A stretch of DNA of 64,000 nucleotides from Actinomyces sp. Marseille-P3109. Its GTDB lineage: Bacteria; Actinomycetota; Actinomycetes; Actinomycetales; Actinomycetaceae. The translations under genes were made by a program, and so were the position numbers. The notes beneath the pieces were generated by a model. The model had not been told where the DNA came from and made no database searches. It saw only the letters and a list, made by a program, of their open reading frames with translations. The stretch covers positions 2,496,460 to 2,560,459 of the forward strand of contig NZ_OOHN01000008.1 of assembly GCF_900323545.1 (NCBI RefSeq), written 5' to 3'. Below are positions 14,879 through 32,222 of the stretch, piece by piece (the stretch's first letter is position 1; the number at the start of each line of letters is the position of its first letter).

Positions 14879-15565
14879 ATGGGACGCGATCGGGTCGAGA
14901 AGGCCATCACTCAGATCCTCGACTCCATCTCCGATGGAGTGTTCAAAGAGGAGTCTCCACTGCCTGCCGAGGCCGAGCTGGCCCGGTTCCTGGACGTGTC
15001 TCGAACAACGATGCGTGAAGCGATCAGGTCGTTGGCCGTTGGCGGAGTCCTCAAAGTCGTCCACGGCACGGGCACCTACGTCCAGCCCTACCGGCTGTGG
15101 CACGACCCTCGTTTCATCACCCACGTCGCACTGCTGCGAAGCGATCACCATGACATCGAGCAGGAGGTGCTGGAGCTGCGTCGGATCATCGAGGTCGGAG
15201 CCGCACGGCTCGCGGCTCAGCGGTGCACGCAGGAGCAGCTGGAGTTGCTGGCGCAGTACAAGGCCGACTACGAACAGGCCCACGCTGAGGATGACATCGA
15301 CGGGGCCGTGGATGCGGACCTCGCTTTCCACGGGACGATCCTGGAGGCCACCGGCAACATCTATATCGCCTCATCCCTGAACTCTCTGACGGAGGCCCTG
15401 GTTGCAGCCCGCCGACAGGCAGCCTCCGATCCCGCGTTTCGCAGTCTGGTCGTCACTCAGCACGTCGATGTCCTGGAGGCCCTCCAGGCCAAGGATCCTC
15501 AACGAGCCGCCGAGGCCATGAGCGCGCACATGGCTCCGCGCCAGCCCCAGGAGGCGGAGAACTGA
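14879..15565 (+). CDS. GntR-family (FadR/FCD) transcriptional regulator
   Basis: A 228-residue regulator. The N-terminal winged HTH reads LPAEAELARFLDVSRTTMRE then AIRSLAVGGVLKVVHGTGTY (about 28-67). The all-helical C-terminal FCD ligand domain shows LELRRIIEVGAARLAA, the D-x-x-F-H motif DADLAFHGTILEATGN, and a last His in TQHVDVLEAL, consistent with a metal-assisted carboxylate-binding pocket. FCD regulators commonly sense organic acids such as glycolate, lactate or sugar acids. It heads the catabolic island and precedes the DUF1537 kinase by 108 bp; glyoxylate, glycerate or an allantoin-derived acid is a plausible ligand, by inference. Confidence 0.9.
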   Translation: MGRDRVEKAITQILDSISDGVFKEESPLPAEAELARFLDVSRTTMREAIRSLAVGGVLKVVHGTGTYVQPYRLWHDPRFITHVALLRSDHHDIEQEVLELRRIIEVGAARLAAQRCTQEQLELLAQYKADYEQAHAEDDIDGAVDADLAFHGTILEATGNIYIASSLNSLTEALVAARRQAASDPAFRSLVVTQHVDVLEALQAKDPQRAAEAMSAHMAPRQPQEAEN

Positions 15566-15580
15566 GGAGCCCCATCCGGC

Positions 15581-15609
15581 CTGAGGTGTTATCCTGCCAA
15601 CACACTCAG
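15581..15609. promoter_or_regulatory. Inverted repeat before the DUF1537 kinase
   Basis: CTGAGGTGTT and AACACACTCAG form imperfect arms of about ten bases around an 8-base spacer, 65 bp upstream of the kinase start. There is no T-run, so an operator is more likely than a terminator. Assignment to GntR or IclR is untested. Confidence 0.3.
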
Positions 15610-15673
15610 CGCTCCCATCTTTGCAGGGTTCGTGCTGCGCGCTTACGCCAATGGTGACGGTAAGGAGATTGTT

Positions 15674-17119
15674 GTGCCCACGTACGAGGAGCTTCTTGCT
15701 CTTTATCCGCCGAGCCCGAGTGTCACGGCCGACGACGTCCGGACCGCCATCAAGGCACGCCAGCATCCCGATCCGGTCTTCATCGTGTTGGACGATGACC
15801 CGACCGGCACCCAGTCCGTCACAGATCTGCCCGTTCTCATGGCATGGGACGTCGAGGACTTTCAGTGGGCGCTGGCCGAGCAGGCCCCTGCCATCTACGT
15901 CATGACGAACTCGCGCTCGCTCGATCCGCACGAGGCGCGGCGCATCACCATTGAGGCTGTCACCAACGCTTTGTCCGCCGCCCAGGACCTCGATGTCACG
16001 CTCGCCTTCGCCACCCGCTCGGACTCGACTCTGCGAGGCCATTTCCCGCTGGAGCCTGACACGATCGCCGAGGTCCTGGCCTCATCCGGGCAGGATGTGG
16101 ACGGGGTGGTCCTCGTGCCGGCGTTCCCCGAGGCCGGTCGCATCACGGTGGGCGGTACTCACTACGCTCGCATCGGCGAGGACTATCTTCCTGTCAGCCA
16201 GACAGAGTTCGCGCAGGACGCGACCTTCGGATACAGGACGTCACGCCTGAGTGAGTGGGTGGAGGAGAAGACGAAGACAGCAGTCACCGCCAACACGGTC
16301 TCCACACCCAGCCTCACCGACGTGAGAACCGACCCCGAGAGACTTGCCAGCTACCTGTCGGCTCTATCCGACCGTCAGGTGATCGCTCCGGACATCGCAT
16401 CGGAAGAGGACCTGCGCGCACTGAGTCTGGCTCTCATCCGAACCGAGGACCAGGGACAGCACTTCATCTACCGGGTGGGCCCGCCCTTCATGCGCACACG
16501 TATCGGCCAAGAGCCTCGAACTCCGCTGACGCCACAGGACGTCATGCGCATCCGGGACACCTCCGGAACACCGCAGCGCCCCGCCGTGCCCGGCGGTCTG
16601 GTCGTCGTCGGGTCTCACGTGGCTCTCACCACCAGCCAGCTCGACGACCTTCGCTCCCACGTGGAACTCGCTCGATTCGAGATCGACGTCGCCACGGTCA
16701 TCGACCCGGGCACCCGCGAGAAGCACATCCAGGCGGTCGTCAGCGAGGTGGTCGCCGCCCTACGGCAGGGCTCCGTCATCATCAACACCTCCCGCCGTCT
16801 TGTGGTGGGCGCGGGTGCCGATGAGTCCCTGGACATCTCTCGCCGCGTGTCCGACGCCGTCGTTGAAACGGTCCACAGGATCGTGGAGCAGGTGGTGCCG
16901 CGTTTCGTCGTCGCCAAGGGGGGAATCACGTCGTCGGACGTGGCGGCCCGCGGCCTCGATATCCGCCACGCCCGCTGCATCGGTCCGATGCTGCCGGGTA
17001 TCGTCTCCCTGTGGGCGGCTCAGGACGGCCTGGCGCAAGGCGTTCCCTATATCGTCTTCCCCGGCAACGTGGGCACGTCCACCTCGTTGACCGAGGTAGT
17101 TCGTACCCTTGAGAGATAG
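15674..17119 (+). CDS. DUF1537 four-carbon acid sugar kinase family protein
   Basis: A 481-residue kinase of the OtnK/DtnK (D-erythronate/D-threonate kinase) family. The N-terminal domain carries FIVLDDDPTGTQSVTDLPVL (about 36-55), then ATRSDSTLRGHFPLE, both hallmarks; the C-terminal nucleotide-binding domain has FVVAKGGITSSDVAARGL and FPGNVGTSTSLTEVV. Known members phosphorylate sugar acids at the terminal hydroxyl. The GTG at 15674 is chosen for the AAGGAG six bases upstream. No aldolase or PdxA2-type partner is adjacent. Because the island makes tartronate semialdehyde and so probably glycerate, but no glycerate kinase is seen, this enzyme could fill that role; that is speculative. Confidence 0.85.
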   Translation: MPTYEELLALYPPSPSVTADDVRTAIKARQHPDPVFIVLDDDPTGTQSVTDLPVLMAWDVEDFQWALAEQAPAIYVMTNSRSLDPHEARRITIEAVTNALSAAQDLDVTLAFATRSDSTLRGHFPLEPDTIAEVLASSGQDVDGVVLVPAFPEAGRITVGGTHYARIGEDYLPVSQTEFAQDATFGYRTSRLSEWVEEKTKTAVTANTVSTPSLTDVRTDPERLASYLSALSDRQVIAPDIASEEDLRALSLALIRTEDQGQHFIYRVGPPFMRTRIGQEPRTPLTPQDVMRIRDTSGTPQRPAVPGGLVVVGSHVALTTSQLDDLRSHVELARFEIDVATVIDPGTREKHIQAVVSEVVAALRQGSVIINTSRRLVVGAGADESLDISRRVSDAVVETVHRIVEQVVPRFVVAKGGITSSDVAARGLDIRHARCIGPMLPGIVSLWAAQDGLAQGVPYIVFPGNVGTSTSLTEVVRTLER

Positions 17120-17131
17120 CCGCTACCGACG

Positions 17132-17968
17132 ATGACGCTCCTGAACCAGCGCAAGGCAGACCCGGAAATGAACCGCTCGTTGCCGGAGCAGGCCGAGTCA
17201 GCGGCGCGCCCCCGGAACCAGGGCTCCGTCATCCAGTCTGTCGACCGAGCTCTTGATGTCCTCGAAGAGCTGGCCAAGGACGGAACGAGTTCGTCACTCG
17301 CTCTGCTCGCTGAGCGTACGGGGCTGCCGGGCCCCACCGTCCACCGCATTCTGCGGACTCTGGCCTCTCGCGGCTATGTCATCAAGACGGCTCGGGGTGA
17401 GTACTCCGTCGGAGGTGCCTTCTTCGCTCTGACAACGACCGCCGGTCGATCCGTTGGATCCGCCCTTCATGACATTCTCGACCGGCTTGGCCAGGCCACA
17501 GGCGAGTCGGTAGCGGTGGCGATGCTTGACGCCGACGAGGCTCTGTACATCGCGCACCGCACGTCGACACAGTCCATGCGCCAGTTCACACAGGTGGGGA
17601 ATCGAGTCTGCCTGCACGCAACCGGCGTGGGCAAGGTGCTTCTAGCGTCCATGGACTCCGAGCATCGCGCTTGCCTGCTTCACCATATGAAGCTTCCGGT
17701 CTTCACCTCGCACACTCTGGCAAGTCGAGGCGAGCTCCAAGCGGAGATCGAGCGAATCTCCTCGCGCGGCTACGCCATCGACAACGAGGAGCAGGAGCTG
17801 GGCGTTCGTTGCATGGCCATGGGCATTCCGGGGAATAACCTCTTCGCCGCCTCAGTGTCGGGCCCTCCCTCGCGCATGAGCGCAGAGCACATGACCCACG
17901 TCATTCTTCCGGAGCTGATGAGCGCCGTTGATGAGATCGCTGCCACTCTGACCGTCACGCATGCATGA
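17132..17968 (+). CDS. IclR-family transcriptional regulator (AllR-like context)
   Basis: A 278-residue regulator with an IclR winged helix (SVIQSVDRALDVLEELAKDG, then LALLAERTGLPGPTVHRILR, about 31-75) and the effector domain with RTSTQSMRQFTQVG, LHATGVGKVLLA, and GYAIDNEEQELGVRCMAMGI. The Cys in GVRCMA is in the usual ligand-pocket position. IclR proteins such as AllR control allantoin and glyoxylate genes, so this is a candidate repressor of the cluster to its right. It ends in a hairpin that overlaps the stop codon. The ATG at 17132 is used; another at 17168 also precedes the HTH. Confidence 0.88.
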   Translation: MTLLNQRKADPEMNRSLPEQAESAARPRNQGSVIQSVDRALDVLEELAKDGTSSSLALLAERTGLPGPTVHRILRTLASRGYVIKTARGEYSVGGAFFALTTTAGRSVGSALHDILDRLGQATGESVAVAMLDADEALYIAHRTSTQSMRQFTQVGNRVCLHATGVGKVLLASMDSEHRACLLHHMKLPVFTSHTLASRGELQAEIERISSRGYAIDNEEQELGVRCMAMGIPGNNLFAASVSGPPSRMSAEHMTHVILPELMSAVDEIAATLTVTHA

Positions 17969-17985
17969 TGCGCCTGTGGCGCATC
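17967..17985. terminator. Short perfect hairpin between convergent genes
   Basis: GATGCGCC-tgt-GGCGCATC is a perfect 8-bp stem with a 3-base loop that overlaps the IclR stop codon. It lies between convergent genes. No T-tract follows, so termination strength is uncertain. Confidence 0.45.
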
Positions 17986-18030: not shown

Positions 18031-18276
18031 TCAGCGGGACACCTTGTCAGCGAGGTAGAGGCCGATCGCGGCTGACACGACCGTGGTCACAAGAGACAGC
18101 GCCATCGACACGAGGTTGCCACCGAACACCGACGCCACGAAGGCGACCATCGAGAGGATGGCAACGAAGGCCAGGGCCACCGAGGCGACAGTCAGCGGTG
18201 CGAAACGGTCGAGGTACTTGGCGTAACGAGGGTAGGCCACCTGCCGGCGGGTGATCGCGTTGTCAAAAGTTGTCAT
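18031..18276 (-). CDS. Small two-helix membrane protein, hypothetical
   Basis: An 81-residue protein with two hydrophobic segments: LTVASVALAFVAILSMVAFV (about 28-47) and ALSLVTTVVSAAIGLYLA (about 59-76). The N-terminus is basic and contains YPRYAKYLDRF. AAAGGA lies eight bases before the ATG, so it is probably translated. It is convergent to the IclR gene and has no recognised family; small membrane proteins of this size beside transporter clusters sometimes act as accessory subunits, but nothing here proves that. Confidence 0.6.
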   Translation of the reverse strand: MTTFDNAITRRQVAYPRYAKYLDRFAPLTVASVALAFVAILSMVAFVASVFGGNLVSMALSLVTTVVSAAIGLYLADKVSR

Positions 18277-18655: not shown

Positions 18656-18660
18656 TACGT

Positions 18661-19525: not shown

Positions 19526-20473
19526 ATGCAGACGAATAATCGAGGTGTCGTGATCGCCGTCGGCGGGAACGCCCTCATCAAGGAGAAGAGCAGGATCTCC
19601 ACCAATGACCAGTCTGAGGCGATCCGGGAGACCTGCACCTACATCGCCGATATCGTCGAGCAGGGGTACAACCCAGTCATCACTCACGGCAATGGACCGC
19701 AGGTTGGATTCCTTCTGCGCCGAGCCGAACTGGCTCTTGGTGAGCTTCCCACCATCCCCCTGGACATACTTGGCGCGGACACGCAGGGAGCCACGGGCTA
19801 TCTTTTCGCCCGCAATCTGCGCAACGTGCTCGCCGAGCGCGGCGTCGAGCGCGATGTCGCGGCGATCGTCACCCAGTCCGTCGTAGACCCCGCCGACCCG
19901 GCCTTCGACTCACCGACCAAGCCCATCGGCTCCTTCATGGACGAGCAGGAAGCAGAAAAGCACCGGACGGAGGACGGGTGGGTCGTCAAGGAGGACGCTG
20001 GACGCGGTTTCCGTCGCGTTGTCGCCTCTCCGCAACCCGTCGAGATCATTGAGCTCGAGATCATCAAGTCGCTCATCAACTCGGGTGTCATGGTGATCGC
20101 CGCTGGTGGAGGAGGAATTCCCGTCACTCGCGAGAACGGGAGCATCAACGGCCGCGAGGCGGTCATCGACAAGGACCTGGCGTCATCGCTCCTGGCCAAC
20201 AGCCTCGAGATCGAGGACTTCATCATCTGCACGGCCGTCGACCAGGTCTACCTGGATTTCAACTCTCCGAACCAAAAAGGAATCAGCACCATGACCGCCG
20301 AGGAGGCTACTGGCTATCTGGAGGCGGAACAGTTCGGAAGCGGCTCCATGGCACCCAAGATCGAGGCGGCCGTCAGATTCCTCAAGAATGGAGGCCGGCG
20401 CGTCATCATCACATCCCTGGACTGCCTCGCCGACGCCCTTGACGGCAAGGCAGGAACCACCATCACCAACTGA
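19526..20473 (+). CDS. arcC: Carbamate kinase
   Basis: A 315-residue amino-acid-kinase-fold enzyme that transfers phosphate from carbamoyl phosphate to ADP, giving ATP plus carbamate. Diagnostic segments are VIAVGGNALI near the N-terminus, VITHGNGPQVGFLLRRAE (about 50-67), KPIGSFMDEQEAE, and GGGGIPVTRENG with AVIDKDLASSLLA. An arginine deiminase operon is absent from the surroundings; instead it sits between the racemase and NCS1 permease in the allantoin-type cluster, so its carbamoyl phosphate probably comes from the atypical carbamoyltransferase at 23.5 kb. A clear AAAGGAAC site precedes the ATG. Confidence 0.95.
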   Translation: MQTNNRGVVIAVGGNALIKEKSRISTNDQSEAIRETCTYIADIVEQGYNPVITHGNGPQVGFLLRRAELALGELPTIPLDILGADTQGATGYLFARNLRNVLAERGVERDVAAIVTQSVVDPADPAFDSPTKPIGSFMDEQEAEKHRTEDGWVVKEDAGRGFRRVVASPQPVEIIELEIIKSLINSGVMVIAAGGGGIPVTRENGSINGREAVIDKDLASSLLANSLEIEDFIICTAVDQVYLDFNSPNQKGISTMTAEEATGYLEAEQFGSGSMAPKIEAAVRFLKNGGRRVIITSLDCLADALDGKAGTTITN

Positions 20474-20519: not shown

Positions 20520-22022
20520 ATGAGTACGCAAGTTTCAACAGCATCTCAGGAACAGTCCAAGGTCGACGTGGACGCACACCTCATCAATGACGACCTGGCG
20601 CCGGCAAAAGAACGCAATTGGTCCTTCTTCTCCCTATTTGCCATGTGGATGTCCGACATCCACTCCATCGGTGGGTACACATTCGCGGCCGGACTATTCA
20701 CCCTCGGTTTGGGCGCGGCGCACGTCTTCGCTGGCCTGTCCGTAGGTATTGTCATTGTTTTCTTCATCATGAACCTGGTCGGCTTTGCCGGCCAGAAGAC
20801 TGGACTTTGCTACCCCGTTCTGGCCCGAATTTCTTTCGGAACTATTGGCTCCAACGTTCCCGCTCTCACTCGAGGTTTCGTGGCCATCTGCTGGTACGGA
20901 ATTCAGACCTGGCTGGCATCGCGGGCCGTCATCGTCCTGGCCGCCGACATATGGCCGCACATCACCGACTACGGTCGACAGCGATTCCTCGGCGAGAGCC
21001 TGCTCGGCTGGGCGGCCTTCCTGCTCATGTGGGCACTGCAGCTGCTGCTTCTACGTAACGGCATGGAGACCATCCGAAAGTTCCAGGACTTCGCCGGACC
21101 CGCGGTGTGGATCGTCATGCTTATTCTCACGATCTACGTCCTGAAGGAAGCAGGATGGCACATCTCGCTGTCAGTGCCCTCTAAACCTGCCGAGTGGGGC
21201 CCGGTGCACGCCTTCCTGGCGGCAATCTCGCTCACCGTCACATATTTTGCGACTCTCCTGCTCAACTTCTGCGACTTCTCTCGGTTCTCACCGTCACGCA
21301 AGGCTGTCTGGATGGCCAACCTGTGGGGTCTTCCGGTCAACTTCATCGCATTCTCAGTCGTGTCCGTGCTTGTCACCGCAGGCTCTAAGCAGATCTACGG
21401 CGAATATATTTACGATCCGGTTGAGCTCGTAGGGAAGATCGACTCTCCGGTGGCCTCCATCTTGGGCGCGCTCACCTTTACTGTCGCCACCCTGGGAATC
21501 AATGTGGTAGCCAATTTCGTCTCGCCCGCGTACGACCTCGCCAACGCCTGGCCGTCGAAAATCACCTTCGTCCGAGGAGGAATCATCTCGGCCGTCATCG
21601 CCCTGCTCATCACTCCGTGGAACCTTTACAACAACCCCATTATCGTCAACATCTTCCTGGCCGCTCTGGGCGCGGTTCTGGGGCCGTTGTTCGGGATCAT
21701 CATCGCCGACTACTACCTCTTGCGTAAGCAGAAGGTCCAGGTTTCCGAGCTGTTCAAGGCCAACGGCATGCACTCGTTCAAGAACGGCTGGAACATGCGG
21801 GCTGTCACCACTTTCGTTGTCACATCCATCCCCTCGATCATCGTGGCCGTCGTTCCACTGTCCTGGTGCAAGTTCCTCAGCCCCTTCTCATGGTTCATCG
21901 GCGCAGCACTGTCACTCGTTGTGCACTACTACGTCTCCCGGAACGATCCTTACGTCGTCAGAGCCGTTGAGGCCGCTTCCAAGGTGGATCTCGACGCCGA
22001 TCTTGCCGCAGTGGCGCGGTAG
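20520..22022 (+). CDS. NCS1-family permease (allantoin/hydantoin/nucleobase transporter)
   Basis: A 500-residue, twelve-helix NCS1 symporter. Family signatures are INDDLAPAKERNWSFFSLFA in the cytosolic N-terminus, MWMSDIHSIGGYTFAAGLF (helix 1), AISFGTIGSN-like ARISFGTIGSNVPAL, RGFVAICWYGIQTWLAS, NFCDFSRFSPS and WNLYNNP. In the allantoin-type cluster the likely cargo is allantoin or a hydantoin. A paralogous NCS1 gene closes the cluster at 30.7-32.2 kb, implying two different ureide or purine-related substrates. AAAGG lies about 11 bases before the ATG. Confidence 0.92.
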   Translation: MSTQVSTASQEQSKVDVDAHLINDDLAPAKERNWSFFSLFAMWMSDIHSIGGYTFAAGLFTLGLGAAHVFAGLSVGIVIVFFIMNLVGFAGQKTGLCYPVLARISFGTIGSNVPALTRGFVAICWYGIQTWLASRAVIVLAADIWPHITDYGRQRFLGESLLGWAAFLLMWALQLLLLRNGMETIRKFQDFAGPAVWIVMLILTIYVLKEAGWHISLSVPSKPAEWGPVHAFLAAISLTVTYFATLLLNFCDFSRFSPSRKAVWMANLWGLPVNFIAFSVVSVLVTAGSKQIYGEYIYDPVELVGKIDSPVASILGALTFTVATLGINVVANFVSPAYDLANAWPSKITFVRGGIISAVIALLITPWNLYNNPIIVNIFLAALGAVLGPLFGIIIADYYLLRKQKVQVSELFKANGMHSFKNGWNMRAVTTFVVTSIPSIIVAVVPLSWCKFLSPFSWFIGAALSLVVHYYVSRNDPYVVRAVEAASKVDLDADLAAVAR

Positions 22023-22091: not shown

Positions 22092-23429
22092 ATGTCTACC
22101 ACGGTCGCGAACCTAGTGATCCACGCAGAAAAGACCGTCTTTCCTGACGGAGTTCGCCCCGCGACAATCGTCATCAAAGGAGAAAGAATCGTCGCCGTCG
22201 AGCCCTTTGGTGCGTCGGTGAACGCAGACGAGGAGTTCACCGTCCCTCAAGGGCAGGTGCTCATGCCCGGGCTACTGGACTCCCACGTCCACGTCAACGA
22301 GCCGGGGCGGACCCAGTGGGAAGGCTACGAAAGCGCCACTCGCGCAGCATTGGCCGGGGGAATCACAACGATTCTCGACATGCCCCTCAACTCCGACCCG
22401 CCAACAGTGGACGTGGACAAGCTCGAGCTCAAGCGCACTGCCGCAGCCGGAAAGCTCTCCGTCGACGTCGGCTTCTGGGGAGGCGCAGTTCCCGGCAACA
22501 AGGAGGACCTCGCCGCCCTGTGGGAGAAAGGGGTCTTCGGCTTCAAGTGCTTCACGGCCCACTCCGGCATCGATGAGTACGGCTGTCTGCCTTACGGGGA
22601 GATCGAGGAGGACCTGAAGGAGATCTCCCGCCTGGGGGCGGTCATGATCGTGCATGCCGAGGACCCCGAGATCCTCGCCACCGCTCCTCAGAAGTTCGGT
22701 CCGCGTTACGCAGACTACCTCGCTTCGCGTCCACCGGAGGCTGAGAACGCCGCGATCGAGCACGTCCTCGAGGCCGCTCGCAAGACCGGGGCCCGGGTAC
22801 ACATCCTGCACCTGTCCAGTGCTCAAGCCCTGGAGTCGATTCAGAGGGCCAAGGAGGAGGGCCTGCACGTCACCGTGGAGACGTGCCCCCACTACCTCAC
22901 CTTCGCCGCTGAGCAGATCCCTGATGGCGCCACCGAGTACAAGTGCGCTCCCCCTCTGCGCGAGGAGGCCAACCGGCGTGCTCTGTGGGAGGGCCTGAAG
23001 AGCGGCATCATCGATCACATCGCCTCAGACCACTCCCCGTGCACGGTGGACCTCAAGCGCAAGGAGAGCGGCGACTTCGGCCAGGCCTGGGGAGGCGTCT
23101 CCTCGGTGCAGCTGGGGCTTCCGGCCGTGTGGACGGCGGGACAGGAGTTCGGTGTCGAGCTGAGCGACATCGCCCGCTGGTTCGCCGCCAACCCGGCCCG
23201 CACCTTCAACGTCGAGCACAAGGGCGCGATCTGCGCGGGCAACGACGCCGACCTCGTCATCCTCGACCCGGAAGAGACCTTCGACGTCGACATCGAGTCC
23301 CTTGAGCACAAGAACAAGATCTCCCCCTACCACGGGCGGACTCTACGAGGAGTCGTCCACACGACCATTCTGCGCGGCCGAACCGTGGACCGCGACTCCA
23401 TGCACGGTCGCATGATCGCCCGCGCATGA
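22092..23429 (+). CDS. allB: Allantoinase (cyclic amidohydrolase)
   Basis: A 445-residue binuclear-metal amidohydrolase that opens the hydantoin ring of allantoin to allantoate. Metal and catalytic residues are visible: HVH at 65-67, the carboxylated Lys in GFKCFT (K152), H188 in VHAED, H240 in HILHLSS and D313 in ASDHSPC. The text EPGRTQWEGYESATRAALAG plus ITTILDMPLNS is characteristic of AllB rather than dihydroorotase or dihydropyrimidinase. It lies between the NCS1 permease and the carbamoyltransferase. A related hydantoin substrate is possible because a HyuE-type racemase is present. Confidence 0.92.
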   Translation: MSTTVANLVIHAEKTVFPDGVRPATIVIKGERIVAVEPFGASVNADEEFTVPQGQVLMPGLLDSHVHVNEPGRTQWEGYESATRAALAGGITTILDMPLNSDPPTVDVDKLELKRTAAAGKLSVDVGFWGGAVPGNKEDLAALWEKGVFGFKCFTAHSGIDEYGCLPYGEIEEDLKEISRLGAVMIVHAEDPEILATAPQKFGPRYADYLASRPPEAENAAIEHVLEAARKTGARVHILHLSSAQALESIQRAKEEGLHVTVETCPHYLTFAAEQIPDGATEYKCAPPLREEANRRALWEGLKSGIIDHIASDHSPCTVDLKRKESGDFGQAWGGVSSVQLGLPAVWTAGQEFGVELSDIARWFAANPARTFNVEHKGAICAGNDADLVILDPEETFDVDIESLEHKNKISPYHGRTLRGVVHTTILRGRTVDRDSMHGRMIARA

Positions 23430-23513: not shown

Positions 23514-24509
23514 ATGTCCAGGTACATGCGTTCCATGAAGGGCCTCATCGACGCCGTCGACCACGTAGGCAAGAACTTCATCTCGATCAACGACATGTCC
23601 AACGAGCAGCTGCTGAACCTCTTCGAGCTGGGTAAAGAGCTTGAGCTGTTCAACCGCAGCAAGATCGACCTCTTCGATGACCGCATGCTCGCCCTCATGT
23701 TCTTCCAGCCCTCCACGCGTACACGCATGAGCTTCCAGACAGCCATGGAGCGCATGGGCGGCAACGTCATCGTCGAGGCCAACCCCAAGGTGACCTCCTC
23801 CGTCGCCAAGGAGGAGTCCATCGAGGACACCATGCGCTGCGTCTCGCAGTACGCCAACCTCATCGTCCTGCGCCACTACGACGAGGAGGAGGCCCGCCGA
23901 GGCGCCGAGTCCGCGGAGTGCCCGGTCATCAACGGCGGGTGGGGGCACTGGGAGCACCCGACCCAGGCGCTCCTCGACCTCTACACGCTGTGGCGCCGTT
24001 TCGGTCGGATCGAGGGGCTCAACGTGGCCGTGGTCTCCCCCGACATGGTGGAGGCCCGCACCGGGCACTCCATGGCCTACGGGCTGGCCCGCCTGGGGGC
24101 GAACGTCACCATCGCCTCCGACTCCGACCGACGTACACCGACCAACATCATCAATCGGATCCAGGACGACCTGGGCGCCAAGGTGAACGAGGAGTTCGAC
24201 TTCGAACAGGACTCCTTCAACGAGTTCGTGCGCGGCCAGGATCTCATCTACCTTCCGGGTTGCTCGGCCCCGGCAGGAGCCAAGGCGGAAGAGTTCAAGA
24301 CTCTGATGGACCGCTACTTCGTCCGCTACGAAACTCTCAAGGAAGAGGCAGAAAAGGGCCACAAGGTCTACGTGACCCACACGCTGCCACGCCGTAAGGG
24401 AGAGATGGATCTGCGCATCGACAACACGGAGCACCAGCTGCATTTCCGCGCAATTCTGCAGTCGGTGTCGATTCGAATGGCCCTGCTCGCTTCCATTTTG
24501 GGCCTGTGA
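23514..24509 (+). CDS. Atypical aspartate/ornithine carbamoyltransferase-family protein, probably catabolic
   Basis: A 331-residue transcarbamylase. The carbamoyl-phosphate domain is intact: FFQPSTRTRMSFQTAM (STRTR at 67-71), SVAKEESIEDT (K99 where ATCase has its catalytic lysine loop), and HPTQALLDLYTL (148-159). The C-terminal domain keeps ARTGHSM (R182) and THTLPRR, but the loop that binds aspartate in ATCase (R-V-Q) reads PGC (248-250) in DLIYLPGCSAPAGAKAE. It is therefore unlikely to be PyrB or an ornithine enzyme. With carbamate kinase and allantoinase in the same operon, a catabolic direction is expected: phosphorolysis of a ureido compound (oxamate, ureidoglycolate or allantoate type) to carbamoyl phosphate. 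The substrate is unproven. Confidence 0.85.
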   Translation: MSRYMRSMKGLIDAVDHVGKNFISINDMSNEQLLNLFELGKELELFNRSKIDLFDDRMLALMFFQPSTRTRMSFQTAMERMGGNVIVEANPKVTSSVAKEESIEDTMRCVSQYANLIVLRHYDEEEARRGAESAECPVINGGWGHWEHPTQALLDLYTLWRRFGRIEGLNVAVVSPDMVEARTGHSMAYGLARLGANVTIASDSDRRTPTNIINRIQDDLGAKVNEEFDFEQDSFNEFVRGQDLIYLPGCSAPAGAKAEEFKTLMDRYFVRYETLKEEAEKGHKVYVTHTLPRRKGEMDLRIDNTEHQLHFRAILQSVSIRMALLASILGL

Positions 24510-24631
24510 CCAGTCCGTTGTCCGCTGGGGGGCGGGACACCTCCTGTCCCCCAGCAGATGACAATCCACCAGCAAACAGCGGGGACCTTGCGACGACGTC
24601 GAGAGTAATCCCGCATCACGAAAGGAGGATG

Positions 24632-25453
24632 ATGGTGGACACACAAGAACTCGAGAAGCTGCAAGGCATTGCTCGGCAGTGCCGCCGGGACATCGTAAAA
24701 ATGGTGCACCACGCAGGTAGCGGCCACCCGGCAGGATCACTGTCAGCAATTGACATCCTGGTAGTTCTCTACTTCCGCCACATGAATATCCGCACGGAAG
24801 AGCCCCAGTGGCGAGAACGAGACATGTTCTTCCTCTCCAAAGGCCACTGCACACCCGCCTACTACTCGGTCCTGGCAGCTCGCGGCTACTTCGAACATGA
24901 CGAGCTCATGACCTTCCGAGACCTGGGCACTCGACTGCAGGGGCACCCCTCCAACACGCACCTTGAGTGCGTCGACTCCTCATCCGGTTCTCTGGGTCAA
25001 GGACTGTCGCTGGCCAATGGGGCGGCGCTGGCGGCGAAGTACGACCTGCTGGACTCTCGTTACTACGTCATGCTCGGCGATGGTGAGATCCAGGAGGGTC
25101 AGGTGTGGGAGGCCGCAATGACGTCCTCCGACCACGATCTGGATAACGTGTGCGCCATTCTCGACGCCAACAGCATTCAGCTTGACGGCCCCGTTGACTC
25201 CGTGAAATCTCTCGGCGACATAGACGCCAAATGGCGTGCTTTCGGATGGCACGTCATCGATATCGACGGACACAACATGCAAGAGGTGGACGAGGCGCTC
25301 ACTCAGGCCAATTCCACGATCGGACGCCCAACTCTGATCATCGCACGCACAGTCAAGGGCAAGGGCGTCTCATTCATGGAGAACACCTCGAAATATCACG
25401 GCCTCGCCCCCACGGACGAAGAACTCGAACTGGCATTGGAGGAACTTCGATGA
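24632..25453 (+). CDS. Transketolase-family protein, N-terminal (ThDP-binding) subunit
   Basis: A 273-residue subunit carrying the pyrophosphate-binding half of transketolase. Evidence: MVHHAGSGHPAGSLSAIDIL, FLSKGHCTPAYYSVLAARGY, SSGSLGQGLSLANGAALA, the ThDP motif GDGEIQEGQVWEAAM with the downstream Asn in LDANSIQLDG, and TVKGKGVSFME. Split transketolases are common in actinobacteria and archaea. AAAGGAGG is followed by ATG-ATG-GTG at 24629, 24632 and 24635; GTG 24635 has the best spacing, so the true start is uncertain by one or two codons. It overlaps the second subunit by ATGA. A catabolic role beside glyoxylate carboligase is suggested by context. Confidence 0.92.
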   Translation: MVDTQELEKLQGIARQCRRDIVKMVHHAGSGHPAGSLSAIDILVVLYFRHMNIRTEEPQWRERDMFFLSKGHCTPAYYSVLAARGYFEHDELMTFRDLGTRLQGHPSNTHLECVDSSSGSLGQGLSLANGAALAAKYDLLDSRYYVMLGDGEIQEGQVWEAAMTSSDHDLDNVCAILDANSIQLDGPVDSVKSLGDIDAKWRAFGWHVIDIDGHNMQEVDEALTQANSTIGRPTLIIARTVKGKGVSFMENTSKYHGLAPTDEELELALEELR

Positions 25454-26447: not shown

Positions 26448-27365
26448 ATGAAATCATCGCTACACGACTACATGAAGGTCGGACTCATACACTTTATGGC
26501 CTACCCCTTCGCTGCCAGCGGCGACGGCGATATTGCCAGAACGATTGAGGAAATCGCGGTCGACGACTTCTTCGACGCCATCGAGATCACACGCATCAAT
26601 GATGTCGAGCAGCGCAAGATCGCCAAGTCGATCATCGACACTGCCGGGATGACCGTCGGCTTCGGCGCGCAGCCCTACATCCTCAAGGGAAAGCTCAACC
26701 TCAACTCCACTGATGAGCAGGAACGCGCCAAGGCCGTGGAGGTCCTCAAGGAAGCCGTCGATCAGGCCTACGAGATGGGCGCCCGCAAGTTCGGCTTCCT
26801 CTCCGGACCGAAGCCGGCAACGGGGCAGGATGAGGCGCTGGCGCTTCTGGCAGACTCGATCACCCAGATCGGCCGCTATGCCGCGTCCAAGGGCGATCTG
26901 ACCCTGTCACTGGAGACCTTCGACGACTCGACCGACAAGTGCGCCCTCATCGGCACCAATCGGCTGGCGGTGGAGCTCTCGCGAGAGGTTCGCAAGACCA
27001 TTCCGGACTTCGGTCTGATGGTCGACCTGTCCCATCTCCCCATGCAGGGCGAGACGATTCACGAGGCTCTGTCCGTCACCGAGGAGCACATCAACCACGC
27101 ACATATCGGTAGCTGCGTCATCCGCGACCCCTCCGATCCGGCTTACGGCGACCTCCACCCGGCGTTCTCCCACCCCAAGGGCGAGTGCGGTGTACCGGAG
27201 GTACGGGAGTTCCTCCGGGGCCTGCTGGAGATCGGCTACCTGAGCGAGGACGCCCCGGAGCGGCCGGTGGTCTCCTTCGAGGTTCAGCCACTCGGGGGAC
27301 AGACAACCGGGCCGGTGGTCGCCAACGCCAAGCGAGTTCTGCGCGAAGCCTGGCGCACCCTGTAG
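26448..27365 (+). CDS. Xylose-isomerase-like TIM-barrel protein (hydroxypyruvate-isomerase type)
   Basis: A 305-residue protein of the AP-endonuclease-2/sugar isomerase superfamily. Probable metal ligands are E156 (SLETFDD), D193 and H196 (MVDLSHLPM), H219 (NHAHIG) and E278 (SFEVQP), all in the positions expected for this barrel. Relatives include hydroxypyruvate isomerase (Hyi) and 2-oxo-tetronate isomerase (OtnI). Here, upstream of tartronate-semialdehyde reductase and glyoxylate carboligase, interconversion of tartronate semialdehyde and hydroxypyruvate is the simplest guess, but the sequence is too divergent from Hyi to call by eye. Confidence 0.75.
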   Translation: MKSSLHDYMKVGLIHFMAYPFAASGDGDIARTIEEIAVDDFFDAIEITRINDVEQRKIAKSIIDTAGMTVGFGAQPYILKGKLNLNSTDEQERAKAVEVLKEAVDQAYEMGARKFGFLSGPKPATGQDEALALLADSITQIGRYAASKGDLTLSLETFDDSTDKCALIGTNRLAVELSREVRKTIPDFGLMVDLSHLPMQGETIHEALSVTEEHINHAHIGSCVIRDPSDPAYGDLHPAFSHPKGECGVPEVREFLRGLLEIGYLSEDAPERPVVSFEVQPLGGQTTGPVVANAKRVLREAWRTL

Positions 27366-27467: not shown

Positions 27468-27884
27468 ATGACCATGCTCGAGATCACGGCCGGCGGTTTC
27501 ACCTTCAAGGCCCGCTACGAGGAGGACAGCGCCCCCAAGACGGTGGCAGCCTTCAAGAAGCACCTTTTGGGACTGACGTCCAAGATCATTCACGTTCGCT
27601 GGTCCGGACAGGCCGGATGGATCCCCTTCGGGGATCTCGACCTGGGCCTGGAGCCGGAGAACGGCACCTGCTATCCCCACCCCGGAGAGATCGTCATCTA
27701 CCCCGGCGGGGTGTCCGAGACTGAGCTGCTGATCGGCTACGGGTACGTGAACTTCGCATCCAAGGCGGGCCAGCTGGCCGGGAACCACTTCGCCACCATC
27801 GTCGAGGGCAATGAGCACCTTGCCGAGCTCGGGGAGAAGTTCCTCTGGGAAGGCGCCCAGGAGATCAGCTTCCGGGAAGTCTGA
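27468..27884 (+). CDS. DUF3830 (cyclophilin-like fold) protein
   Basis: A 138-residue protein of the DUF3830 family, whose known fold resembles cyclophilin. Recognisable text is GGFTFKARYEEDSAPKTVAA, HVRWSGQAGWIPFGD, CYPHPGEIVIYPGGVSETEL and NHFATIVEGNEHLAELG. The family has no assigned activity; genes of this type recur in catabolic clusters. Retention between the isomerase-like gene and glxR, with its own AAGGAG site, argues for a specific enzymatic or substrate-handling role in this pathway, for example on a ureido intermediate that lacks an identified enzyme here. Confidence 0.8.
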   Translation: MTMLEITAGGFTFKARYEEDSAPKTVAAFKKHLLGLTSKIIHVRWSGQAGWIPFGDLDLGLEPENGTCYPHPGEIVIYPGGVSETELLIGYGYVNFASKAGQLAGNHFATIVEGNEHLAELGEKFLWEGAQEISFREV

Positions 27885-27952: not shown

Positions 27953-28885
27953 ATGACCGCGCACGACGATATTCAGACCATACGAACCGTGGGCTTCATC
28001 GGTTTGGGTTCGATGGGCCTGCCCATGGCGCTGAACCTGCTCAAAGCGGGTTTCGTCGTGCGCGGCCACTCCCGGAGCGCCGAGAGAACCCGTCTCTTCA
28101 CGGAAGCCGGCGGGATCGACGCACCGGATCTCGGCAGCATCCTTGAGAAGGCCGACGCCGTCATCACCATGGTGCCCGACGGCGACGTCGTCGAAGAGCT
28201 CATGGAGGCGCCTGACGGGATCGCGGCCCGAGCACCGCGCGGCTGCCTCATGCTCGACATGAGCACGATCGCCCCCGACCAGGCAAGGGGTCTGGCCGCA
28301 CGGTGCCGGGATCTGGGAATCGACTTCCTCGACGCACCCGTCTCAGGAGGCACCAAAGGGGCGCGCGACGGCAGCCTCACCATCATGGTCGGGGGCGAAG
28401 AGGCGACCTTCGCCAAGGCCCAGCCGCTCCTGTCCGCCATGGGCACAACCATCACCCGCATGGGACAGGAGGGCTCGGGCCAGGTCACAAAGGCCGCCAA
28501 CCAGCTCATTGTGGGAGGCGCCCTGGCCGTCCTGTCCGAGGCCATCATCCTGCTTGAACACAACGGCGTGAACCCCGTCCACGCACTCGGGGCGCTTTCG
28601 CAGGGCCTGGCCGGCTCCAGGATCTTGGACCTGAAGGGCGAGGCGTCCGTTTCTCGGAGCTTCAGCCCCACTTTCACCATCAGGCTGCACAGCAAAGACA
28701 TGGGGATCGTCCAGTCGACCGCACGTTCTTCCGGCTGCTGCCTGCCTACAGCCAGTTCCGTAGCCCAGCTCTTCACCGCGGCAGAGGCCAACGGGTGGAC
28801 GGACCTCGATCACTCCGCCCTACTCAAGGTCATCGAGCTGCTCAGCGGCACATCCAGTAACGATCAGAGAGAAGAACAGTCATGA
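27953..28885 (+). CDS. glxR: 2-hydroxy-3-oxopropionate (tartronate semialdehyde) reductase
   Basis: A 310-residue beta-hydroxyacid dehydrogenase that reduces tartronate semialdehyde to D-glycerate. The Rossmann motif is [20 protein letters not shown] (14-33), the substrate-binding loop [11 protein letters not shown] (128-138), and the catalytic Lys lies in [12 protein letters not shown] (K180). It overlaps the glyoxylate carboligase start by ATGA, the enzyme that makes its substrate, which supports this over other family members such as 3-hydroxyisobutyrate dehydrogenase. The first ten residues are a slight extension. Confidence 0.9.
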
Positions 28886-30666
28886 CACACATGCGTGCAG
28901 TCGACGCAATCGTCCAGATCCTGGAGAAGGAGGGCGCCACCCAGGCCTTCGGGGTCCCCGGTGCCGCCATCAATCCTTTGTACTCCGCCATGAAGGAGCA
29001 CGGTGGAATACGGCATGTCCTGGCGCGGCATGTTGAGGCCGCCTCCCATATGGCGGAGGGCTACACGCGCACAGTGCCGGGAAACATCGGAGTATGCATC
29101 GGTACCTCCGGTCCGGGAGGGACCGACATGGTCACAGGCATGTACTCGGCCTGGGCCGACTCCATTCCCATCCTGTGCATCACGGGCCAGGCCAAGGTGG
29201 CCATGCTTCACAAGGAGGAGTTCCAGGGGGTCGATATCGCCTCGATCGCGGAGCCGGTCACCAAGATGGCCACGACGGTCCTGGAAGCAGCACAGATTCC
29301 GGGCACCTTCGCCAAGGCCTTCCAGCTCATGCGGACGGGACGTCGGGGCCCAGTTCTTATCGACCTCCCCATGGACGTGCAGATGGCCACCATCGATTTC
29401 GACATCGATGCCTACGAGCCGCTTCCCGTGCCGGTCCCGAGGATGTCGTCGTACCAGGCCGACACCATTCTGGACATGCTCGACGCCGCAGAGCACCCGG
29501 TGCTGATTGCCGGCGGCGGCATCATGAACGCCGATGCCTCCCAAGAGCTGGTCAGTCTCGCCGAGTTCTTAGGGATTCCGGTGATCTCGACGCTGATGGG
29601 CTGGGGCTCGATCCCTGACGACCACCCCCTCGCCCAAGGAATGGCTGGAATCCAGACCTCCCACCGCTACGCCAACGCAACCTTCCTGGAGGCGGATCTG
29701 GTCATCGGCATCGGCAACCGCTGGGCCGCCCGCCACACCGGTGACCTCACCTCCTACCGGGGCGAGCGCCGTTTCGTGCACATCGACGTCGAGCCGACTC
29801 AGATCGGCAGGGTCTTCCCCGCTGACTTCTCCTCGGTGTCCGACGCCAAAGCGGCCCTGGAGGTGCTTCTCGCGACTGCCCGCGAACGTTACGGGCGTCC
29901 GGTCGAGAGGTATCGGCAATGGGTCGAGGAGTGCAACGAGCGCAAGCGGACGATGCTGCGCCGCACCCACTTCGACCAGGCGCCGTTGAAGCCCCAGCGC
30001 GTCTACGAGGAGATGTGCCGCGCCTTCGGGCCCGAGACCCGCTACGTCACCACTATCGGACTGTCCCAGATCGCCGCGGCGCAGATGCTGCACGTCTATC
30101 GTCCGCACCACTGGATCAATGCGGGTCAGGCGGGTCCCCTGGGGTGGACGATCCCCGCCGCGATCGGTGCGGCTGTTGCCGATCCGCAGACACCCGTGGT
30201 GGCGCTGTCCGGTGACTACGACTTCCAGTTCCTCATCGAGGAGCTGGCTGTGGCCGCGCACTTCCGTATTCCGTACGTTCACGTCGTCGTCAACAACGCC
30301 TATCTCGGACTCATCCGCCAGTCCCAGAGGGCCTTCGACATGGATTACCAGGTCCAGCTGTCCTTCAAGAATCTCAACGCGCCTGAGACCGACGGCTACG
30401 GGGTCGACCATATCGGCGTCGCCGAGTCGCTCGGCTGCAAGGCGATACGGGCACGAACACCTGAGGAACTGTCGGAAGCCCTGCGCACAGCGCGTCAGAC
30501 AGCACAGACATTCAGTGTTCCCGTCATTGTCGAAGCCATCCTCGAGCGCGTCACGAATATCTCCATGGGAGCTGCCGTTGACGCCGTCACTGAGTTCGAG
30601 GAGCTCGCCGAGAACCCGGCGCTCGACGCCCCTATGGCCGTGGCCCTGCAACAGGAGAGTAAGTAG
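28882..30666 (+). CDS. gcl: Glyoxylate carboligase (tartronate-semialdehyde synthase)
   Basis: A 594-residue ThDP- and FAD-type enzyme joining two glyoxylates into tartronate semialdehyde plus CO2. The decisive mark is [15 protein letters not shown]: Val at residue 51 replaces the Glu found in other ThDP enzymes, as in known Gcl. The ThDP motif is [19 protein letters not shown] (GD-x27-NN, ending [10 protein letters not shown]). Length and the C-terminal ERVTNISMG also fit. It is coupled to glxR by ATGA and explains the fate of the glyoxylate released from allantoin-type substrates. Confidence 0.95.
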
Positions 30667-30734
30667 ACACCTACATATGAAATCGACAATCGCAATTCAA
30701 GTTTTAAGACGACTGACTACTCAAGGAGAGTATT

Positions 30735-32222
30735 GTGAAAGCGCTCGAAGCGGACTACGACGAGCTCCGGGAGGGTGATCCTCAGGGGCGGCTGTTCAAT
30801 GACGATCTCGCTCCCGCCCGCGCCAGCGACCGCCAGTGGAACAGTTACGCCCTGTTCTCACTGTGGATGAATGACGCCCACAACGCCTCGAACTACACCT
30901 TCGCAGCAGGACTGTTCATCGGCACCGGCGTCATTATGGGCATGACCCCCTTATCGATCGTCATCGGAGTGTTCATCGCAACATTCATCATCTTCATCGC
31001 CTGCTGCGTATCCGGGCTGATGGGGTATGAGACCGGAGCGCCCTACCCGGTCATCTCCCGCGTCACCTGGGGCGTGTGGGGTGCGAACTTCCCGGCCCTG
31101 GTTCGAGGGATCGTCGCTATCGCGTGGTACGGGATCCAGACCTATCTGGCATCCATCTCGCTGGAGTTGCTGTTGATGCGGATCTTCCCTCCCATGCAGC
31201 ACTGGACCGCGTCCTTCGTGGGGCTACGCCTGTCCGGGTGGGTGGCCTTCCTTATCCTGTCGGGGATCCAGCTGATCATCGTCTGGCGAGGCATGGAGGC
31301 GGTGCGTCACTTCCAGGGTGCTGCCGGACCGATCATCTGGGTCATCATGATCGGCCTGGGAGTCTGGATGCTCTCCCAGGCAGGCTGGGACTTCAGGTGG
31401 ACAGTCAACGCGGATAACGTCACACCCCCTATCGGCACGCAGTTCTACCAGATCTTCGTGACGGTGGGACTGACAATCGGGACGCTGGCGACCCTTATGC
31501 TCAACTTCTCCGACTTCGCCCGCTACGCACCGAGTCGTCGCTCCGTGGTCATGGGAAATGTTCTGGGCCTGCCTCTGAACTGGACCGCCTTCGCTCTGAC
31601 CTCGGTCTTGTGCTCTGCCGCTGCCATCAAGGTTTACGGCGAGGCCTTCCATGATCCGGGCGACCTGCTGTCACGCATCGACAACGACGTCGTCTTCTAC
31701 GTGGTCTCGATCGCCTTCATCGTGGCCACGATCGGGGTGAATATTGTGGCGAACTTCGTCTCGGCAGCTTTCGATCTGTCCAACCTCAACCCTAGAAAAA
31801 TCTCTTTCAGGGTGGGCGGAATCGTGTCCGTCATCGCATCGATCGTCGTGACTCCCTGGAACCTCTATGGAAGCCCAACAGCGATCAACTACTTCCTCGG
31901 TTCTCTCGGGGCGCTTCTCGGCCCCTTCTTCGGAATCCTCACACTTGACTACTTCTACTACAAGCGGTCACGAGTGGACCTGCGGGATCTGTACTCCCCC
32001 AATCCGGAAGGACGCTACTTCTACCGAGGAGGCCTCAATACCGACGCTCTGCTCGGCTTCATTCCGGCGGCCATCGTCGCTCTGTGCATCGCCCTGGTTC
32101 CGGCTTTCAGCAAGGTGTCTCCTTTCTCCTGGTTCATCGCCGCACCATTAGGAGCCCTGTGCTACTGGATCGTGCAGACGCTGCGGGGCAACAAGCCCCT
32201 GCCCACCGGCTCCGGCGACTGA
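30735..32222 (+). CDS. Second NCS1-family permease
   Basis: A 495-residue, twelve-helix NCS1 transporter paralogous to the one at 20.5 kb. Signatures are FNDDLAPARASDRQWNSYAL, LWMNDAHNASNYTFAAGLF, ISRVTWGVWGANFPALVRG, IAWYGIQTYLAS, NFSDFARYAPSRRSVVMGN and WNLYGSPTAINYF. The GTG start is preceded by AAGGAGAG. In the first helix it has NDAHNASNY where the first copy has SDIHSIGGY; this region lines the substrate site in the family, so the two probably differ in cargo. It closes the operon, 68 bp after gcl. Confidence 0.9.
   Translation: MKALEADYDELREGDPQGRLFNDDLAPARASDRQWNSYALFSLWMNDAHNASNYTFAAGLFIGTGVIMGMTPLSIVIGVFIATFIIFIACCVSGLMGYETGAPYPVISRVTWGVWGANFPALVRGIVAIAWYGIQTYLASISLELLLMRIFPPMQHWTASFVGLRLSGWVAFLILSGIQLIIVWRGMEAVRHFQGAAGPIIWVIMIGLGVWMLSQAGWDFRWTVNADNVTPPIGTQFYQIFVTVGLTIGTLATLMLNFSDFARYAPSRRSVVMGNVLGLPLNWTAFALTSVLCSAAAIKVYGEAFHDPGDLLSRIDNDVVFYVVSIAFIVATIGVNIVANFVSAAFDLSNLNPRKISFRVGGIVSVIASIVVTPWNLYGSPTAINYFLGSLGALLGPFFGILTLDYFYYKRSRVDLRDLYSPNPEGRYFYRGGLNTDALLGFIPAAIVALCIALVPAFSKVSPFSWFIAAPLGALCYWIVQTLRGNKPLPTGSGD

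What the first reader, a model, noticed from the sequence alone, without database searches (positions are those of the whole stretch)
14879..32222. A coherent allantoin-type island with an unfilled middle
The genes (racemase, carbamate kinase, two NCS1 permeases, AllB, carbamoyltransferase, two-subunit transketolase, hydroxypyruvate-isomerase-like, DUF3830, GlxR, Gcl, DUF1537 kinase, GntR and IclR) read as one ATP-yielding ureide pathway. Allantoate amidohydrolase, ureidoglycine aminohydrolase, ureidoglycolate lyase or dehydrogenase and glycerate kinase are all absent from the window. The carbamoyltransferase, transketolase, isomerase and DUF3830 proteins occupy the gap. A route in which the carbamoyl group is removed phosphorolytically rather than by amidohydrolase would be new chemistry for allantoin use.
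Basis: partly seen in the sequence, partly recalled or inferred. Interest (0 to 1): 0.85.

Follow-up and report, generated by a model that had tools for sequence, protein, structure and literature searches.

The report
Allantoin island with DUF3830 gap-filler
This Actinomyces gene island probably breaks down allantoin by splitting off a carbamoyl group with phosphate to make ATP, a reaction already shown in another bacterium in 2013, and a widespread protein of unknown function (DUF3830) is the best candidate for the step that was thought to be missing.

Summary
In detail: 15 genes form one allantoin-type island, and no AllC, AllE or AllA was found in the 99.98%-complete genome. Two full glycerate kinases lie elsewhere in it. 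Phosphorolysis of allantoate is well supported but not new: the carbamoyltransferase (CT) shares a supported clade with the Rubrobacter xylanophilus ureidoglycine carbamoyltransferase assayed in 2013 (PMC4016543). The new result is DUF3830. It sits at the position of Rxyl_2846, left "Unknown" in 2013. It stays when CT is exchanged for AllC. Among 50 CT genomes, 18 have window-type DUF3830, 29 AllE, none both, 3 neither, though this reflects only about two evolutionary changes. AllA is missing too. I propose that DUF3830, a cyclophilin-like fold closest to 3KOP and to the Pictet-Spenglerases KslB and McbB, converts ureidoglycine to ureidoglycolate or directly to glyoxylate, urea and ammonia. 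This is inference; nothing was assayed.

The parts
14879..15565 (+). GntR-family regulator
   Evidence: NCBIfam matches to LldR/NanR and other subfamilies, all below cut-off
15632..17119 (+). DUF1537-type acid-sugar kinase, specificity unknown
   Evidence: D-threonate kinase model 67 bits, cut-off 450; present in 4 of 9 related loci: L005, L006, L009, L013
17132..17968 (+). IclR-family regulator
   Evidence: BhcR model 177 bits, below cut-off 350; AllR 96 bits
18664..19446 (+). allantoin racemase (Asp/Glu racemase superfamily)
   Evidence: PF01177 166 bits; solved allantoin racemase 5LFD, E 5.6e-95
19526..20473 (+). carbamate kinase, ATP-forming
   Evidence: TIGR00746 382.3 bits, over cut-off
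20520..22022 (+). NCS1 permease, presumed allantoin uptake
   Evidence: PF02133 302.9 bits; allantoin permease model 280 bits, below cut-off 620
22092..23429 (+). allantoinase AllB
   Evidence: TIGR03178 550.9 bits, cut-off 357.85
23514..24509 (+). ureidoglycine carbamoyltransferase (UGTCase) type enzyme; proposed to phosphorolyse allantoate
   Evidence: 61% identical to the R. xylanophilus gene, same supported clade, shared motifs STRT, HPTQ, GCS, HTLP
24632..25453 (+). split transketolase, N-terminal subunit (ATG at 24629 or 24632)
   Evidence: PF00456 188 bits; start codons
25450..26391 (+). split transketolase, C-terminal subunit
   Evidence: split-chain transketolase 6YAJ, E 5.6e-87; overlaps the N-terminal gene by 4 bp
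26448..27365 (+). xylose-isomerase-like TIM barrel, closest to ketose 3-epimerases; found in loci that lack hydroxypyruvate isomerase
   Evidence: PF01261 68 bits; 8XIV E 1.8e-5; replacement pattern
27468..27884 (+). window-type (short) DUF3830; candidate ureidoglycine-consuming enzyme
   Evidence: PF12903 100.5 bits; conserved linkage and exclusion of AllE
27953..28885 (+). tartronate semialdehyde reductase GlxR (probable)
   Evidence: TIGR01505 310.7 bits, just below cut-off 340.75
28882..30666 (+). glyoxylate carboligase Gcl
   Evidence: NF008431 1012 bits, cut-off 791
30735..32222 (+). second NCS1 permease
   Evidence: allantoin permease model 282 bits, below cut-off 620

Best explanation
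The island imports allantoin (two NCS1 permeases), racemises it, and opens it to allantoate (AllB). The UGTCase-type carbamoyltransferase then splits allantoate with phosphate into ureidoglycine and carbamoyl phosphate, and carbamate kinase turns the latter into ATP, CO2 and ammonia. DUF3830 takes over ureidoglycine: either it replaces ureidoglycine aminohydrolase (AllE), or it carries the molecule directly to glyoxylate, urea and ammonia and so replaces AllE and AllA together. Gcl joins glyoxylate into tartronate semialdehyde. GlxR plus a glycerate kinase elsewhere in the genome, or the TIM-barrel protein plus split transketolase, feed that into central metabolism. Shown by sequence: gene content, absences, clade membership, replacement patterns. 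Shown by others: the phosphorolysis, for the Rubrobacter enzyme. Inferred: the substrate of the window enzyme, the reaction of DUF3830, and the transketolase tail.
For: CT: the window CT lies in a 36-row clade (support 99/92) with the R. xylanophilus CT and shares every residue named for UGTCase in PMC4581275 except one lysine. No AllC/AllE/AllA was found genome-wide. DUF3830: (1) it is in the CT locus in 18 of 18 Actinomycetota loci among L005-L034, with open frames at most 61 bp apart in 15 of 18, and in all 6 of 396 sampled genomes of the phylum that have CT at E 1e-90. (2) It occupies the place of the 'Unknown' Rxyl_2846: the order in L096 matches Table 2 of PMC4016543. (3) In 27 loci of the 396-genome sample it sits with CT in 5, with an AllC-like gene in 16 and with neither in 6; 26 of 27 hold other urate/ureide genes. 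Two unrelated enzymes that both make ureidoglycine therefore share this neighbour. (4) Whole genomes of 50 of the 80 CT loci: window-type DUF3830 only 18, AllE only 29, both 0, neither 3 (Fisher p 7e-11). (5) AllA lies within about 2.5 kb of CT in 6 of 80 loci, none with DUF3830; of 27 window-type DUF3830 genomes in the sample none has AllE and one has AllA.
Against: No assay. Lys261 of the Rubrobacter enzyme, a suggested but unproved substrate residue, is Ala254 here and in the other Actinomycetaceae and Propionicimonas loci. The AllE/DUF3830 exclusion needs only two changes on the CT tree, and one is not ruled out, so Fisher's p overstates independence. AllE and AllA are rare in the phylum sample anyway (3 and 9 of 396), so their absence from the 27 DUF3830 genomes says little by itself. 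Carbamate kinase was not found in 7 of the 18 DUF3830+CT loci (L006, L013-L016, L033, L034), so ATP formation is not a constant of the cluster within 10 kb. In L105, L108, L125 and L127 DUF3830 lies with uricase and HIU hydrolase but no AllB, AllC or CT in the stretch. L026 has CT, DUF3830 and an AllC-like gene (37%). If urea is the product, no urease was found in the window genome. Fold similarity shows no function.
Confidence: 0.66

Rival explanations
1. DUF3830 is not the ureidoglycine enzyme. Ureidoglycine and ureidoglycolate decay spontaneously, as proposed for R. xylanophilus at 60 C, and DUF3830 has another role in the cluster (stereochemistry, sensing, binding).
For: PMC4016543 calls ureidoglycine thermally unstable and suggests spontaneous decay; PMC3793230 says ureidoglycolate decays spontaneously to glyoxylate and urea but is moderately stable.
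Against: Actinomyces and Trueperella are not thermophiles (recalled). CT genomes of other phyla keep AllE (29 of 50 genomes) and some AllA (6 of 80 loci), so decay alone is not generally enough. DUF3830 has 44 positions conserved in at least 97% of 46 sequences, which fits an enzyme.
Confidence: 0.2
2. The carbamoyltransferase acts twice: it also phosphorolyses ureidoglycine or ureidoglycolate, so that both carbamoyl groups give ATP and no urea is made.
For: No urease found in the window genome or in G041, the R. xylanophilus genome; Barba et al. considered a promiscuous carbamoyltransferase.
Against: The text read reports allantoate as substrate only. AllE and AllA genes near CT in other phyla point to one phosphorolysis only. 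DUF3830 would have no task.
Confidence: 0.12
3. An asparaginase-like enzyme, as Barba et al. proposed for Rxyl_2849, deaminates ureidoglycine to ureidoglycolate, and DUF3830 does something else.
For: Rxyl_2849 adjoins CT and carbamate kinase in R. xylanophilus; an asparaginase-like match lies in 10 of 23 DUF3830+CT loci.
Against: It is missing from 13 of those 23 loci, from the window's island, and from all AllC+DUF3830 loci of the sample, whereas DUF3830 is constant. Asparaginases elsewhere in the window genome were not searched.
Confidence: 0.06
4. The island degrades another hydantoin or ureide, not allantoin, and the CT works on a different N-carbamoyl amino acid.
For: Lys261 replaced by Ala; both permeases are below the allantoin-permease cut-off; Table 1 of PMC4016543 files motifs like the window's (H[ST]LP, GX[SC]) under a subgroup other than that of UGTCase.
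Against: AllB is over the allantoinase cut-off, the racemase is closest to allantoin racemase, and Gcl and GlxR point to glyoxylate. The Rubrobacter gene itself shows HTLP/GCS, so Table 1 does not separate them.
Confidence: 0.08

Closest known systems
Ureidoglycine carbamoyltransferase (UGTCase) route of Rubrobacter xylanophilus (Barba et al. 2013, PMC4016543)
   Same: AllB, DUF3830, CT, carbamate kinase, GlxR and Gcl are shared; CT is 61% identical and in one clade.
   Different: The window's island has no urate-oxidation genes or asparaginase; it adds allantoin racemase, NCS1 permeases, split transketolase and a TIM-barrel protein; Lys261 is Ala.
Escherichia coli all regulon (AllB, AllC, AllE, AllA, Gcl, GlxR, Hyi, GlxK; composition recalled)
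   Same: AllB, Gcl, GlxR and the glyoxylate logic.
   Different: No AllC, AllE or AllA found; carbamoyl is removed phosphorolytically at the first cut (inferred).
Oxamic transcarbamylase AllFGH (PMC11326118; search listing and start of abstract seen)
   Same: Carbamoyl phosphate from a ureide.
   Different: Acts on oxalurate at the end of the pathway; its family was not compared here.
Cyclophilin-like Pictet-Spenglerases KslB and McbB; DUF3830 structure 3KOP
   Different: 16-27% identity over the fold; KslB and McbB join Trp to an oxo-compound (PDB titles; PMC7024544 passages); no shared catalytic residue was tested.

Membership tests
UGTCase | Carbamoyl phosphate motifs STRT and HPTQ | tested here: met
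   Window S67-T70 and H148-Q151
UGTCase | H(T/S)LP motif and Ser of the GCS loop (PMC4581275) | tested here: met
   HTLP and GCS in the window and in L096
UGTCase | Lys261 of the 240s loop (suggested, not confirmed, in PMC4581275) | tested here: not met
   Ala254 in the window; among DUF3830-type loci Lys is kept only in L018, L026 and the Rubrobacteraceae
UGTCase | Phylogenetic clade with the assayed Rxyl_2847 | tested here: met
   36-row clade, 99/92; the assayed clone differs at several places from the genome sequence according to PMC4016543
UGTCase | Phosphate-dependent release of carbamoyl phosphate from allantoate | not testable with these tools
   Needs an assay
Aspartate carbamoyltransferase | Aspartate-binding R-X-Q loop and HPxP motif | tested here: not met
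   GCS and HTLP instead; the genome's own paralogue in L003 has RVQRER and HPGP
Knotted YgeW carbamoyltransferase | Score over the curated YgeW model | tested here: not met
   31.5 bits, cut-off 500
Ureidoglycine aminohydrolase AllE | Bicupin family TIGR03214 encoded in the genome | tested here: not met
   0 matches at E 0.01; DUF3830 is predicted as a cyclophilin-like fold, so it could only be an analogue
Ureidoglycolate lyase AllA | PF04115 encoded in the genome | tested here: not met
   0 matches at E 0.01
Allantoate amidohydrolase AllC | TIGR01879 over cut-off in the genome | tested here: not met
   Best 19 bits, cut-off 204
DUF3830 (PF12903) | Over the Pfam cut-off, cyclophilin-like fold | tested here: met
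Hydroxypyruvate isomerase | TIGR03234 over cut-off | tested here: not met
   26448-27365 scores 19 bits, cut-off 353.45
Split-chain transketolase | Separate N- and C-terminal chains | tested here: met
   PF00456 in one gene, PF02779 and PF02780 in the next; 6YAJ

The most novel reading that the evidence does not exclude
Window-type DUF3830 is a cyclophilin-fold ureidoglycine lyase that uses iminium chemistry like the fold-related Pictet-Spenglerases to turn (S)-ureidoglycine directly into glyoxylate, urea and ammonia. It would be an unrelated third solution to the middle of the ureide pathway, shared by the phosphorolytic and the AllC routes and replacing both AllE and AllA.
Probability: 0.38. 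Interest if true: 0.78.

Novelty: new variant of a known kind. Interest (0 to 1): 0.62.

Why it matters
It moves the open question from the carbamoyltransferase, already answered for a relative in 2013, to one small protein that is simple to test: DUF3830. A search with the window's copy scored 8000 candidates, and 7998 passed E 1e-8 (only the best 120, at 75% identity or more, were seen). No paper in the library searched names DUF3830, and the 2013 study left exactly this gene as 'Unknown'. A function would complete the middle of purine-ring catabolism in those Actinomycetota that carry it and would add an enzyme to a fold best known for prolyl isomerases.

Tried and rejected
Rejected: (1) transketolase and TIM barrel as gap-fillers, because they were not found in 14 of 14 other DUF3830+CT loci. 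(2) CT as YgeW or aspartate carbamoyltransferase. (3) DUF3830 as an obligate CT subunit, because it also sits with AllC and CT occurs without it. (4) Urease as a general companion: 10 of 27 window-type genomes match PF00449, some only by fragments, and the window genome and G041 have none; in L103 urease lies beside the cluster. (5) Using Table 1 of PMC4016543 to class the window CT: its row for the Rubrobacter subgroup (HPLA, AIA) does not fit the L096 sequence (HTLP, GCS), while PMC4581275 gives HTLP; I relied on the sequence.

Led nowhere: papers holding both DUF3830 and allantoin, 0; DUF3830, 0; ureidoglycine with cyclophilin, 1, by its title on wheat nitrogen; Actinomyces with allantoin and carbamate kinase, 0; split transketolase, 0. 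The first PDB sequence search with DUF3830 gave only a weak 3KOP match, the profile a better one. The gene caller I wrote first picked wrong-strand ORFs in GC-rich loci and was replaced. Not done: search for AllD, allantoicase, PucG or asparaginase in the window genome; search there for a full-length transketolase; residue-level comparison of DUF3830 with KslB or McbB.

Limits of the counts: for the 50-genome test I gave 50 of 80 CT loci (L046 and L056-L084 left out). G177 was left out of the window-type DUF3830 count (three copies, non-ureide context, own-profile scores 34.7, 23.6 and 17.8 bits). The own DUF3830 profile (208-260 bits for window-type, at most 42 for the rest) was built from the window-type sequences themselves, so their high scores are partly by construction; L129 and the long types were not in it. 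L023 and L097 are the same genome by contig coordinates, so the 23 DUF3830+CT loci are 22 genomes; L006 and L013 are near-copies. The AllC label in 10 of 16 loci rests on tblastn alone; 6 were scanned. In L102 the AllC-like gene is on the other strand.
Full report
What is there. The window lies in a 3.15 Mb, 99.98% complete genome. Its nearest named relative at this locus is Actinomyces sp. oral taxon 170 (L005, carbamoyltransferase 98% identical). At 14879-32222 fifteen genes run on one strand with gaps of -4 to 122 bp, apart from one gap of 695 bp that holds a small reverse-strand ORF. Three refinements follow. The racemase is closest to solved allantoin racemase (5LFD, E 5.6e-95). The 'hydroxypyruvate-isomerase-like' protein is a xylose-isomerase-type TIM barrel closest, weakly, to ketose 3-epimerases and far below the hydroxypyruvate isomerase cut-off. 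The transketolase halves are a split-chain transketolase, a known kind (6YAJ).

The gap is real in the genome. No AllC-type amidohydrolase reaches the cut-off (best 19 bits, cut-off 204), and AllE and AllA give no match at E 0.01; E. coli is among the control genomes that ring in all three searches. Two full glycerate kinases are present outside the window, so the tail of the pathway need not be broken. AllD was not searched.

The carbamoyltransferase step is known chemistry. Barba et al. 2013 (PMC4016543; abstract and outline, parts 2-3 of the results and passages seen) proposed that Rxyl_2847 of Rubrobacter xylanophilus splits allantoate with phosphate into ureidoglycine and carbamoyl phosphate, and assayed it: activity depended on arsenate or phosphate and was 5.9 umol/min/mg at 60 C. 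I take L096 (genome G041, one contig of 3,225,748 bases, a length I recall for that strain) as the same locus. Its eleven genes from permease to regulator follow Table 2 in order. Uricase and asparaginase were checked by family scan; AllB, DUF3830, CT, carbamate kinase and IclR by BLAST; permease, OHCU decarboxylase, deaminase and HIU hydrolase I read from length and sequence only. Counting along the L096 CT printed, 13 of the 14 residues that PMC4581275 (passages) numbers for the Rubrobacter enzyme fall exactly in place; Arg126 is Arg127. The window protein is 61% identical to it. It shares STRT, Ser95, Lys99, Arg120, HPTQ, Arg182, the GCS loop and HTLP, and lies with it in a 36-row clade supported 99/92 in an IQ-TREE tree of 94 rows. 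One named residue differs: Lys261, suggested from a model, is alanine in the window and in the other Actinomycetaceae and Propionicimonas loci. Table 1 of the 2013 paper gives other motifs (HPLA, AIA) for the Rubrobacter subgroup than this sequence shows; I note it as a likely slip and did not use it.

The transketolase and TIM barrel look like tail genes. I compared 23 loci with DUF3830 and CT (L005-L018, L023, L026, L033, L034, L096, L097, L120, L122, L123; L023 and L097 are one genome). All 9 Actinomyces/Trueperella-type loci (L005-L013) have split transketolase and TIM barrel and none has hydroxypyruvate isomerase. Of the other 14 none has them and 13 have hydroxypyruvate isomerase; the exception, L033, is a 3.1 kb contig. 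GlxR is missing from 3 of the 9 (L008, L011, L012). The simplest reading is that the pair replaces hydroxypyruvate isomerase and perhaps glycerate kinase, for example tartronate semialdehyde to hydroxypyruvate and then a transketolase donor reaction. That is inference. Carbamate kinase, too, is not constant: it was not found within 7 of the 18 Actinomycetota loci of the scan (L006, L013-L016, L033, L034).

DUF3830 is the gap-filler candidate. First, linkage: in 396 genomes of the phylum, CT (E 1e-90) occurs in 6, and all 6 have DUF3830, 5 of them within 100 bp and the window 3 kb away. The gene at the Rxyl_2846 position, 'Unknown' in Table 2, is DUF3830, 53% identical to the window's. Second, constancy when the upstream enzyme changes: I fetched the surroundings of the other window-type copies in that sample, 27 loci from 26 genomes. 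CT accompanies it in 5, an AllC-like gene in 16, neither in 6; 26 of 27 carry other urate or ureide genes, and the exception (L124) starts 0.1 kb from a contig end. Six of the 16 amidohydrolases were scanned and all six exceed the curated cut-off of 479 bits for an allantoate amidohydrolase. CT and AllC share a product, ureidoglycine, so a neighbour common to both most simply acts on it. Third, exclusion: CT clusters of other phyla that lack DUF3830 often carry AllE, for example L029 at 250 bits (cut-off 200). At locus level AllE occurs in 40 of 80, window-type DUF3830 in 18, neither in 22, both in 0. Over whole genomes of 50 of those 80 loci AllE is in 29 and DUF3830 in 19. One of the 19, G421, has a different DUF3830 type away from CT (27 bits on the window-type profile). 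That leaves 18, 29, 0 both and 3 neither (G411, G419, G434; Fisher p 7e-11). The p-value is inflated by relatedness: all 18 are Actinomycetota, the CT tree needs only two changes of state and does not rule out one. AllA lies near CT in 6 of 80 loci, never with DUF3830 (L054 is 159.8 bits by PF04115). Of the 27 window-type DUF3830 genomes in the sample none has AllE and one (G152) has AllA; since these genes occur in only 3 and 9 of all 396, that absence alone is weak evidence.

Verdict. The proposed new chemistry is a known reaction in a new host. The middle of the pathway is not unfilled but most likely held by a protein without a function, for which a specific and easily tested role follows.

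Noticed in passing
L025, L029, L031 (also L024, L030): Chloroflexi and Spirochaetes CT clusters also hold AllE, a ketol-acid-reductoisomerase-like protein and a second, ornithine-type carbamoyltransferase (HCLP). They may run a second phosphorolysis, for example of oxalurate, after an oxidation step.
   Followed up: partly
L040 (AllE-CT-AllB-carbamate kinase also in other Neisseria, Cardiobacterium and Sutterella loci): In L040 a DcuC-type carrier sits between CT and AllB, as if ureidoglycolate were exported in an ATP-yielding allantoin fermentation.
   Followed up: partly
PMC4016543 Table 1: The motif row for the Rubrobacter subgroup (HPLA, AIA) does not fit the gene in the genome (HTLP, GCS).
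   Followed up: yes
window 27468-27884 and L005: In the window and L005 DUF3830 lies after the TIM barrel, while in 8 of 8 other transketolase-bearing loci (L006-L013) it directly follows CT: a local rearrangement.
   Followed up: no
P0180 and P0185: Metagenomic ORFs in which window-type DUF3830 is run on to a piece of OHCU decarboxylase (PF09349), or to what looks like the cytochrome c end of a PuuD-type urate oxidase: further purine linkage.
   Followed up: partly
L107 (G177) and L111-L114: Other DUF3830 types sit near amidases, an amidohydrolase, an M20 peptidase or a solute-binding protein; no ureide-cluster gene was matched there except one deaminase-like hit in L114.
   Followed up: partly
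window 18031-18276, minus strand: 81-residue ORF that looks like a small membrane protein, in the 695-bp gap between IclR and racemase.
   Followed up: no
window 32565-34145: Transposase-like ORF (by eye) directly downstream of the island; island GC 62.3% against 66.8% for the rest of the window.
   Followed up: no
L006: Record named Actinomyces sp. ph3 is nearly identical at this locus to Trueperella pyogenes L013, perhaps a mislabelled genome.
   Followed up: no
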